From a virus: DNA of 21,184 nt. This document shows positions 27 through 4,674 of this stretch, piece by piece. Below the pieces are notes generated by a model that saw nothing but the letters and a program-made list of their open reading frames with translations, did not search any database and was not told where the DNA came from. Position numbers and translations under genes: made by a program. The number at the start of each line of letters is the position of its first letter. Within the stretch, counting starts at the first letter, position 1. The stretch covers positions 1-21,184 of IMG/VR virus record IMGVR_UViG_3300017989_000501; one strand, 5' to 3'.

Positions 27-428
27 CTAGTGGCTTGGGTTGTCTGGGCGTGGTGTGCGGCGTTCTGATGCGCGCCTGCGCCGCCTCAACGCCTCAACAA
101 CCGCCCGCACGTCCGTCCGCTCCACATCCAGCGCCCCGCGAGCTTCGGCGGCCTTGACGAGCTCGTTGCAAGCCGCGCGCTCGGTCGCCCGAGCCTCCCG
201 CGCGCTGTCCTCCGCGTCTCGCTGGCAACGCTCCACAGCCGCCCTCTCCGCGTCTACGAGGCCCAGGCAGCGGGTGTGGCGCTTGGACGCCTGCGCGACG
301 CTCCGGCGGGCGCTGGCGAGGTCTGCGCGGGTGTCTGCGAGGGTCCGCACGTCCCGCCGCCACAGAGAGCCGCCGAGGGCGATTGCGGCGACGAGCAGGG
401 CGCAGACGATGGCTAGGGCGCGGGTCAT
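27..428 (-). CDS. Small membrane-anchored coiled-coil protein, i-spanin (Rz)-like
   Basis: A 133-aa protein with one N-terminal hydrophobic segment (about residues 4-22) followed directly by RRD and then a long charged, Ala/Arg/Glu-rich stretch (about 28-118) that should form a coiled coil in the periplasm. This N-in, C-out single-anchor layout is that of inner-membrane spanins, which join inner and outer membranes in the last step of lysis of Gram-negative hosts. It lies at the end of the lysis region, which fits. The C-terminus is strongly basic (RRRRR near residue 115). No outer-membrane lipoprotein partner with a lipobox was found inside or beside it. The ATG at 428 is the first start after an in-frame TAG and has no clear ribosome binding site, so translation may be weak or coupled in some other way. 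The spanin role is inferred from architecture and position only. Confidence 0.6.
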   Translation of the reverse strand: MTRALAIVCALLVAAIALGGSLWRRDVRTLADTRADLASARRSVAQASKRHTRCLGLVDAERAAVERCQRDAEDSAREARATERAACNELVKAAEARGALDVERTDVRAVVEALRRRRRASERRTPRPDNPSH

Positions 429-579: not shown

Positions 580-804
580 ATGAAACGCTTTGATATTACA
601 GCTAGCATCCCCGTTGACGAGATTCATTGGGTTAGCGACGACTGTGCCGCGCTGCGACATGGTGACATCGTCGCGACCCTGACTCGCGACGGCGATGATT
701 GGACGATGCACAGCAAAGGGCCGAACGACGGCATGTGGCAGGAGGACGCGGTGTCGTCAACCGATGATATCGCACAGGCGCTCTGGTACGAGGCTCCGCG
801 CTGA
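580..804 (+). CDS. Acidic 74-aa protein of unknown function, reverse-oriented moron candidate
   Basis: I do not recognise this protein. It is the only credible plus-strand gene in the window, inserted between minus-strand lysis-region genes: tail-to-tail with the gene at 881-1075 and head-to-head with the gene at 27-428. The product has 15 Asp/Glu against about six Lys/Arg in 74 residues, with Asp pairs spread along the chain (SDD, GDD, TDD) and four Trp. It has no signal peptide or membrane segment. It has its own candidate promoter, operator-like repeat, leader hairpin and GGAG ribosome binding site. The start at 580 is preferred over the in-frame ATG at 532, which overlaps the -10 box. A small, acidic, separately expressed phage gene is typical of host-takeover or anti-defence morons, some of which mimic DNA. 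That function is a guess from charge and context. Confidence 0.65.
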   Translation: MKRFDITASIPVDEIHWVSDDCAALRHGDIVATLTRDGDDWTMHSKGPNDGMWQEDAVSSTDDIAQALWYEAPR

Positions 805-880: not shown

Positions 881-1075
881 TCACTTGAACAGCAGCGCTC
901 GCACGGCGCAATCTTTGGCCTCCAGCAACTTTCGCAGCGCCATCGTGCGCTCAGGGTTGCTGGGGAGCGTCTCGGCAATGCGGTGCGCCGCATCGCAAAA
1001 CGGCTTGCTCACTTCGGCCAGATGCGGCGGGAGGTGCTCGTAGGTGAAGAACTGAAGAAGATAGTCGTGGTTCAT
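881..1075 (-). CDS. 64-aa protein resembling the Acb2/Tad1 hairpin family (possible anti-CBASS/Thoeris sponge)
   Basis: A 64-aa soluble protein whose start is fixed by a full AAGGAG ribosome binding site 6 nt before the ATG at 1075; the longer in-frame ORF upstream is Arg-rich shadow sequence. It starts with an aromatic FFTY segment (9-12), then LPPH (15-18), a predicted helix (about 20-36), the turn LPSNPER (37-43), and a second helix (44-62) with AL-KLLEAKD. The order F-T-Y, Pro-rich turn, helix, (L)P..(R)E(R)..AL.KL.EA, helix matches what I recall of the Acb2/Tad1 hairpin domain of small phage proteins. Acb2 and Tad1 bind cyclic oligonucleotides or cyclic ADP-ribose signals and block CBASS and Thoeris immunity. 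I also recall close relatives of this sequence as uncharacterised phage proteins. The resemblance is from memory without alignment scores, and sponge activity is an inference. Confidence 0.55.
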   Translation of the reverse strand: MNHDYLLQFFTYEHLPPHLAEVSKPFCDAAHRIAETLPSNPERTMALRKLLEAKDCAVRALLFK

Positions 1076-1101
1076 GTCTTGCTCCTTGTTGTTGTTTGGA
1101 A

Positions 1102-1570: not shown

Positions 1571-2014
1571 TCATCGCGCCCTCTTCGTCGGCCGGTTCTT
1601 GCCCCACTCCGCGTACCGCCCGCCGCGCCGGTCGATGTGGACGAATGAGGGTCGCCCGTCGCTCGGCGGACGCTTGTAGTAGCCCGCGCCGTTGAAGCCG
1701 ATGTGCTCGCGGTTGGCGTGCAGAACGCGCCAGAACTCCTCGATCGTGGGCTTGCCGTCGCCCTCAGCTAGCACAAGGTCGGCCGCTCGCGCTGACTGCG
1801 ACGGGAGGTGCTGCGACCGCTTGGCCCCGCCGCACTGCCGGTTGTAGTCCTCGCAGCGGATGCCCGTGCGGACGATGAGGGGCCAGCCGATGGCGTCGCG
1901 TGCGCGCTGGCACATCTCGGCGGTCTCCTGCAGGTCGCGGATGTGCTCGCGCTCGATGCCGCAACCGCAGCCGCAACGGAACTCGCGGAGGGCGAAGTTC
2001 TTGGTGAGTCTCAT
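1571..2014 (-). CDS. Endolysin, M15-type zinc peptidase (VanY-like / peptidase M15A fold)
   Basis: A 147-aa cell-wall peptidase predicted to cut peptide stems of peptidoglycan at the end of infection. The N-terminus has the family's F-x-x-x-E-F-x-C-x-CGCG start (residues 7-19). RTGIRCEDYNRQCGGAKRSQH (49-69) is followed by RAAD (76-79) and FVHID (124-128). The expected zinc ligands are therefore His69, Asp79 and His126, in the M15 order SxHxxx...A-D...H. It is a single catalytic domain of the normal length for this family, with no wall-binding domain, signal peptide or membrane anchor, so it needs a holin. Its ATG overlaps the stop of the upstream gene (ATGA), with AAGGGGG just before it. Confidence 0.88.
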   Translation of the reverse strand: MRLTKNFALREFRCGCGCGIEREHIRDLQETAEMCQRARDAIGWPLIVRTGIRCEDYNRQCGGAKRSQHLPSQSARAADLVLAEGDGKPTIEEFWRVLHANREHIGFNGAGYYKRPPSDGRPSFVHIDRRGGRYAEWGKNRPTKRAR

Positions 2015-4092: not shown

Positions 4093-4674
4093 CTACAGCG
4101 TCTCCAAGTCCTGCGACTGGCGCACCACGGACAGCCCGAAGCCCTGCGCCGCACCGATCTCCACCAACTCGACCGTTGGCGTCAGCGCTCCTGCCATCTC
4201 CAACAGTCGATCCTTGGTGGCGGACGGGCTTGCGTCGTCCTCGTCGCCGGTGCGGGTGATGACCGACGCCCAGGGTGCCGCAGTGCCGAGGTAGGCACTC
4301 GATCCAGAGATGCCGGCCGGTGTCGTCACCACCTCCGCAGCCGCCACAGGCAACGAGCCCGAGCCGCTGCTTTCGGCGCTGATTGTGGTGTCGTTCTGCC
4401 CCATCGGGCTCAGCGCGTTGACGACGCCGCCGCCGCGCGTCACCCACGCCCGCATGCGCTCCGAGTAGGGTGGGACGATGAGCGCGACGCGGCGCAGTGA
4501 CAGCCCGGATGAGGTGCCGTCGAACATCAGCGCGGGTTGAGCGTAGCACCCAAGACCTGACATGACGTAGTTGTCGGCCGCCGCAAGGAACTCGACGCGG
4601 GCTGGGGCCGTTGGGGTGGCGATCAGTGTAGGCGCGGCACTCGGCCAGTTGCTGCTGTGTGGAGGCTTTCGCAT
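4093..4674 (-). CDS. Tail-region protein of unknown function
   Basis: A 193-aa protein that begins with a Pro/Thr/Ala-rich tail (about residues 10-26) and continues as a mixed domain with clear beta strands (LSLRRVALIVPPYSERMRAWVTRGGG around 58-84; a Ser/Gly-rich linker near 105-110). I do not recognise the family. The start ATG at 4674 overlaps the TGA of the previous gene (ATGA), so it is translationally linked to the tail-tip cluster and is probably also a virion component. Longer in-frame sequence upstream is a shadow of the preceding gene. Confidence 0.6.
   Translation of the reverse strand: MRKPPHSSNWPSAAPTLIATPTAPARVEFLAAADNYVMSGLGCYAQPALMFDGTSSGLSLRRVALIVPPYSERMRAWVTRGGGVVNALSPMGQNDTTISAESSGSGSLPVAAAEVVTTPAGISGSSAYLGTAAPWASVITRTGDEDDASPSATKDRLLEMAGALTPTVELVEIGAAQGFGLSVVRQSQDLETL

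What the first reader, a model, noticed from the sequence alone, without database searches (positions are those of the whole stretch)
881..1075. Possible cyclic-nucleotide sponge (Acb2/Tad1-hairpin-like) in the lysis region
Seen: a 64-aa protein with FTY, a Pro-rich turn, two helices and (L)P..PER..AL.KL.EA, with a perfect AAGGAG start signal. Known: Acb2 and Tad1 hairpin proteins are similarly small phage proteins that sequester second messengers of CBASS and Thoeris. Inference: this is a divergent member, perhaps a subfamily whose ligand has not been examined. It lies next to an independently expressed acidic gene, as expected for an anti-defence pocket.
Basis: partly seen in the sequence, partly recalled or inferred. 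Interest (0 to 1): 0.7.

Follow-up and report, generated by a model that had tools for sequence, protein, structure and literature searches.

The report
Divergent relative of phage signal-sponge proteins
This is a real 64-residue phage protein from a large, unnamed and functionally uncharacterised phage family that is distantly related to the proteins phages use to soak up bacterial immune alarm signals, but it lacks a key residue of the known ones, so what it binds, if anything, is not known.

Summary
The gene is real: window 881-1075, minus strand, 64 aa, AAGGAG six bases before ATG, under purifying selection. It belongs to a very large, unnamed phage family (PHROGs 1761/5120; at least 332 GenBank phage records, 422 IMG/VR stretches). 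The window protein fails the Pfam test for the Acb2/Tad1 hairpin (PF24729); family members score only below cut-off. Family-level evidence nevertheless places it next to that hairpin. One member hits PHROG 1454, which contains genuine PF24729 proteins, at 4e-6. An HMM built only from nine PF24729 hairpins ranks family members as 95 of the top 100 of 19,416 ORFs (60 shuffles: at most 14). AlphaFold (pLDDT 94) gives the short-helix-plus-two-long-helices fold reported for Acb2; the best named structural matches outside the family are Acb2/Tad1 hairpins. In one virus a family gene is followed directly by a PF24729 gene. The Acb2 Lys26 column is Ser here; the Tyr11 column and C-terminal Arg are kept. 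Most likely a sister subfamily of signal sponges with another ligand. Binding, oligomeric state and anti-defence activity are untested. The lysis position is incidental. Recent sponge papers were not available, so the family may already be described.

The parts
881..1075 (-). 64-aa gene, family PHROG 1761/5120 (ATG 1075, stop 881-883)
1082..1087 (-). Shine-Dalgarno AAGGAG, 6 nt before the ATG
1049..1063 (-). codons of the predicted short N-terminal helix (residues 5-9)
   Evidence: AlphaFold2
968..1027 (-). codons of predicted long helix 1 (residues 17-36)
   Evidence: AlphaFold2 pLDDT 93.7
890..955 (-). codons of predicted long helix 2 (residues 41-62), holding the near-invariant ALRKLLEAKDCAVRA segment
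1102..1461 (-). neighbouring Gly/Ala-rich membrane ORF, holin-like by composition and place only
   Evidence: no significant family hit
1571..2014 (-). neighbouring M15 peptidase / endolysin
   Evidence: Pfam PF08291 3.9e-13; PHROG 894 endolysin 4.6e-21
27..428 (-). neighbouring Rz-spanin-like ORF (weak)
   Evidence: PHROG 214 E=0.029; N-terminal hydrophobic segment
580..804 (+). acidic orphan ORF, 74 aa, opposite strand; not shown to be part of the system

Best explanation
The 64-aa protein is a member of a large phage family that is a sister group of the Acb2/Tad1 hairpin domain. Supported by computation: it is a compact helical hairpin (short helix, then two long antiparallel helices) with the same loop and second-helix register as PF24729 proteins. 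Inferred: like Acb2 and the C-terminal part of Tad1 it packs through these helices into a small homo-oligomer and binds a nucleotide second messenger between protomers, so that a host signalling defence (CBASS, Thoeris, Panoptes or type III CRISPR class) is not triggered. Because the column of Acb2 Lys26 is Ser in this family, and a separate set of charged residues (Arg48, Glu52, Lys54, Asp55, Arg59) is near-invariant instead, the ligand probably differs from that of Acb2.
For: Transitive homology: the AGM5 member (PHROG 1761 2e-22) hits PHROG 1454 at 3.9e-6; PHROG 1454 is also hit by genuine PF24729 proteins (L185 3.9e-11 with Pfam 1.1e-6; Gray gp14 1.1e-7 with Pfam 5.2e-12, which also hits PHROG 1761 at 0.005 and T4-Acb2 PHROG 717 at 0.0098) and by T4 Acb2 at 7e-4. 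An HMM of nine PF24729 hairpins puts family ORFs at 95 of the top 100 of 19,416 ORFs; 60 column shuffles give at most 14, reversal 3; best family E 1.4e-4 against 1.3 or more (residue-shuffled control). hhalign A3 against A4: E 0.0065 over 43 columns, score above 100 of 100 shuffles. AF2 pLDDT 93.7, helices 5-9, 17-36, 41-62, matching the published Acb2 protomer (PMC10419184, PMC12043709); a true PF24729 protein models as 13-36, 41-62. BFVD Foldseek: best named matches outside the family are Acb2/Tad1 hairpins, including ranks 9-13; the reciprocal search lists proteins shared with the family's own top matches at ranks 21, 33, 44. In L060 the family gene ends at 4356 and a PF24729 gene (7.8e-11) starts at 4362. 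Phages carry it in changing positions, as expected of an accessory gene.
Against: No PF24729 hit for the window protein; family members reach 14-16 bits against a cut-off of 27. Direct comparison with the Acb2 set alone is weak (hhalign E 0.05-0.17). No Acb2 entry among the listed PDB fold or sequence matches. The window's own sequence ranks only 72nd (E 0.35) with the hairpin HMM. The Lys26 column is not conserved. No ligand, oligomer or anti-defence data.
Confidence: 0.55

Rival explanations
1. It shares the hairpin fold and ancestry with Acb2/Tad1 but has another job, for example binding a host or phage protein or a non-immune metabolite. The hairpin would be only a scaffold.
For: PF24729 hairpins include very many untested phage proteins. 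The family's conserved surface (Arg48, Glu52, Lys54, Asp55) differs from the hairpin columns (Thr, Glu/Gln, Phe/Met, Met). Conservation across many bacterial phyla would also suit a constant intracellular target.
Against: The PF24729 proteins with a solved function known to me are signal sponges; tandem placement with a PF24729 gene in L060.
Confidence: 0.24
2. A lysis-cassette protein, such as an antiholin or lysis-timing factor, as its place between endolysin/holin-like and spanin-like genes suggests.
For: Window position; AGM5 copy directly after a holin; phiNP copy at the end of Rz.
Against: Neighbours elsewhere are capsid/connector, portal, head genes, topoisomerase/RNA ligase and recombination/SSB-like genes. 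No signal or membrane segment evident in the 64 residues. A PF24729 hairpin also sits between endolysin and holin in phage Jace, so the slot is not lysis-specific.
Confidence: 0.08
3. An unrelated two-helix protein that resembles the hairpin by convergence and helix composition.
For: Short helical hairpins give weak matches to many families (archaeal DPS 0.004-0.1; designed helical proteins).
Against: Column-shuffled, reversed and residue-shuffled controls lose the signal; PHROG 1454 hit 3.9e-6; same register of Tyr12, Ala46, Leu50, Ala53, Arg59.
Confidence: 0.13

Closest known systems
Acb2/Tad1 hairpin domain, Pfam PF24729, stand-alone phage hairpins (Paenibacillus phage Bob 74, Mycobacterium phage Sparky gp92, Gordonia phages Gray gp14 and Jace gp19)
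   Same: Length, two-helix fold, LP.[GN].E...A...L..A register, phage-encoded, sometimes in lysis modules or in tandem with the family.
   Different: Below the Pfam cut-off; loop before helix 1 about 3 residues shorter; Arg/Lys column replaced by Ser23; Met-Trp-Ala-Asn replaced by Asp-Cys-Ala-Val.
Acb2 (Pseudomonas phage p26 and T4 Vs.4)
   Same: Short helix plus two long helices; Tyr of GY aligns with Tyr12; C-terminal Arg (RA) aligns with Arg59.
   Different: About 30 residues shorter than Pseudomonas Acb2; no Lys at the Lys26 column; insertion between the helices missing; direct sequence similarity not significant on its own.
Tad1
   Same: C-terminal two-helix hairpin (by publication, PMC12043709).
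   Different: No N-terminal beta-sheet in the window protein, though some family members have N-terminal extensions, untested for any likeness to Tad1.
PHROG 1761 / PHROG 5120 (phage families of unknown function)
   Same: The window protein is a member (3.7e-28 and 1.6e-20).
   Different: Nothing functional is attached to these families in the libraries used.

Membership tests
Acb2/Tad1 hairpin, PF24729 | Score above Pfam gathering cut-off (27 bits) | tested here: not met
   No hit for the window protein at E<=10; best family members 14.4-16.4 bits
Acb2/Tad1 hairpin, PF24729 | Demonstrable homology to accepted members | tested here: met
   PHROG 1454 bridge 3.9e-6; hairpin HMM 95 of top 100 against shuffles; supported at family level, not by the window sequence alone
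Acb2/Tad1 hairpin, PF24729 | Two long antiparallel helices (short N-terminal helix in Acb2) | tested here: met
   AF2 pLDDT 93.7; Foldseek BFVD; a prediction, not an experiment
Acb2 | Tyr11 and Lys26 ligand contacts (roles recalled from Huiting et al. 2023, not readable here) | tested here: not met
   Tyr11 column kept (Tyr12); Lys26 column is Ser in 40 of 48 and Ala in 6
Acb2 / Tad1 | Homo-hexamer | not testable with these tools
   Only single-chain prediction available
Acb2 / Tad1 | Binds cyclic oligonucleotides or cADPR isomers and blocks CBASS or Thoeris | not testable with these tools
   Needs purified protein and phage assays
PHROG 1761 / 5120 | Profile match | tested here: met
   3.7e-28 and 1.6e-20
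Lysis proteins (holin, antiholin, spanin) | Constant linkage to lysis genes | tested here: not met
   Linkage varies

The most novel reading that the evidence does not exclude
A very large, unnamed sister family of the Acb2/Tad1 hairpin that sequesters a defence signal different from those bound by Acb2, possibly one whose host system has no known phage inhibitor yet; its strongly conserved Lys-Asp-Cys-Ala-Val-Arg helix would be the ligand site.
Probability: 0.3. Interest if true: 0.82.

Novelty: new variant of a known kind. Interest (0 to 1): 0.6.

Why it matters
If right, a protein annotated as hypothetical in hundreds of phages (T4-like, jumbo, temperate and actinobacterial), with hosts in many bacterial phyla, is a missed branch of signal-sequestering anti-defence proteins. 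It lies below standard profile cut-offs and so would be missed by anti-defence catalogues built on them. The changed site predicts a changed ligand, which makes it a cheap probe for signals that known sponges do not take up.

Tried and rejected
Pfam, PHROGs and NCBIfam on the single sequence: no functional name. PDB by sequence and by fold: only designed helical and unrelated proteins, no Acb2. Direct profile comparison with the Acb2 set alone: too weak to use. Frame rotations of the hairpin HMM are not a valid negative control because the C-terminal helix stays intact. Lysis role: set aside on variable context. Acidic neighbour as partner: no relatives found. Literature for PHROG 1761/5120 or the AKDCAVRA motif: none held. 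The Nat Commun 2026 (Chen), Cell 2023 (Huiting), Nature 2024 (Li), bioRxiv 2025 (Hadary) and Science 2026 (Tal) sponge papers are not held, so overlap with the newer sponge families they describe (Sequestin and Lockin, names from memory, and the TIR-caspase sponge) could not be excluded. Two viral scans with single hairpins found no relatives.

Full report
OBSERVATION. The gene lies on the minus strand of a 21,184-base viral record. ATG at 1075, TGA at 881-883, 64 residues, AAGGAG six bases before the start. It is protein-coding: compared with the closest relative (L001, 87% identical) differences by codon position are 9, 6 and 30, and 25 changed codons are synonymous against 8 that are not. 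Relatives: 332 GenBank phage records, 422 IMG/VR stretches, 53 loci in bacterial and MAG contigs labelled as Proteobacteria, Actinobacteria, Bacteroidetes, Acidobacteria, Planctomycetes, Verrucomicrobia, Bdellovibrio relatives and others, and 24 records of the plasmid collection, most predicted non-mobilizable. PHROGs 1761 (3.7e-28) and 5120 (1.6e-20) hold it, both without function.

FAMILY ANATOMY. In 62 close relatives F10, H14, L15, S23, F26, A30, E42, R48, L50, L51, E52, K54, D55, A57, V58 and R59 are invariant; in a wide set of 48, L50, E52, D55 and R59 remain invariant. AlphaFold2 with the family alignment gives mean pLDDT 93.7 and helices 5-9, 17-36 and 41-62. [quoted passage not shown]).

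IS IT RELATED TO THE ACB2/TAD1 HAIRPIN? The direct Pfam test fails for the window protein, while T4 Acb2 (Vs.4) passes at 7e-20. Of the 62 relatives, one reaches PF24729 at E 0.035 (it is L022); the Enterovibrio and AGM5 members reach 0.045 and 0.011, all matched over the same part of the profile and all below cut-off. Evidence at family level is stronger. (a) The AGM5 member hits PHROG 1454 at 3.9e-6 and the Brachybacterium member at 8.2e-5; PHROG 1454 is hit by L185 (3.9e-11; PF24729 1.1e-6) and Gordonia phage Gray gp14 (1.1e-7; PF24729 5.2e-12), and by T4 Acb2 at 7e-4; Gray gp14 itself also reaches PHROG 1761 (0.005) and the T4-Acb2 PHROG 717 (0.0098). (b) An HMM from nine PF24729-type hairpins, none from the family, was run over 19,416 six-frame ORFs from 133 loci and the window, of which 134 are family members: 95 of the top 100 are family members; 60 column-shuffled HMMs give at most 14, the reversed HMM 3; best family E is 1.4e-4 against 1.3 at best in shuffles. 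Residue-shuffled family sequences lose the score (best 17.1 bits real, 9.7 the highest of 60 shuffles). Family members are related to each other, so these 95 hits are one observation about one family, not 95 independent ones, and the window's own sequence ranks only 72nd (E 0.35). (c) hhalign of the wide family against hairpins plus Acb2: E 0.0065, 43 columns, 35% identities; in a rerun its score exceeds all 100 column shuffles, 16.9 against at most 15.4. (d) Foldseek against viral predicted structures: after the family's own members, the next named matches are Acb2/Tad1 hairpins (ranks 9-13, 19, 22, 30, 37, 46). The model of a true PF24729 protein in turn lists, behind many hairpins, three proteins that were among the window protein's best matches (ranks 21, 33 and 44). 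Against the PDB no Acb2 entry was among the listed matches. Taken together I put common ancestry at about 0.8.

CONTEXT. In the window the gene follows an M15 peptidase and a holin-like membrane ORF and precedes a weak Rz-spanin-like ORF, at the end of a run of minus-strand ORFs that read as terminase, portal, capsid and tail genes (my reading; lysis genes). Elsewhere the family sits after a holin (AGM5), at the end of Rz (phiNP), between capsid and connector genes (DelRio), before portal (martha 12B12), among head genes (Ab105-2phi derivative), by topoisomerase and RNA ligase (ZZ1), and next to ORFs that read as SSB-like and recombination genes (L060). Among 140 neighbours the commonest PHROGs are terminase, replication, portal and endolysin, each in only a few loci. 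So lysis linkage is not a constant. PF24729 genes use similar places: Jace gp19 (Pfam 5.7e-22) lies between endolysin and holin. In L060 the family gene (4123-4356) and a PF24729 gene (4362-4577) are adjacent, five bases apart.

MECHANISM. Acb2 is a hexamer that takes cyclic di- and trinucleotides into pockets between protomers; Tad1 does so for gcADPR and cyclic nucleotides (PMC12043709). In the merged alignment the Acb2 Tyr11 column is Tyr12 here and the C-terminal Arg column is Arg59, but the Lys26 column (Lys or Arg in 18 of 19 hairpins) is Ser in 40 and Ala in 6 of 48 family members, and Met-Trp of helix 2 is replaced by Asp-Cys. The roles of Tyr11 and Lys26 are recalled from Huiting et al. 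2023, which I could not open. I infer an oligomeric sponge with a changed ligand. Fold and ancestry are supported by computation; oligomerisation, binding and counter-defence are inferred.

VERDICT. A new variant of a known kind, with the caveat that several recent sponge studies could not be read.

Noticed in passing
L060:4123-4577: A family gene and a true PF24729 hairpin gene lie in tandem, 5 bases apart, in one phage contig; L064 has a PF24729-like gene (26.5 bits, just under cut-off) about 2.4 kb downstream of its family gene.
   Followed up: partly
L197:2501-2722: Phage Jace gp19, a strong PF24729 hairpin, sits between endolysin and holin and is annotated as hypothetical.
   Followed up: partly
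L011, L028, L036, L072, L136, L163 upstream parts: Some family members carry N-terminal extensions of roughly 40-80 residues (MGQAFD...TKREVFDKL...HEIRIKS type, or another type in L136 and L163), and a Foldseek match is named Anti-TRAP domain protein; possible two-domain proteins.
   Followed up: no
L207:1486-1794 and L208:1492-2349 (minus): Small proteins with LPNKAEATLAQRRLEEAAFW that match PF24729 near its cut-off and look intermediate between the hairpins and this family.
   Followed up: no
window 580-804 plus strand: Acidic 74-aa ORF (pI 4.3) opposite to the late operon, no relative in IMG/VR by pattern scan.
   Followed up: partly
L022 and window protein: Weak matches (0.004-0.1) of the family to archaeal DPS helices in NCBIfam; probably helix composition.
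   Followed up: no
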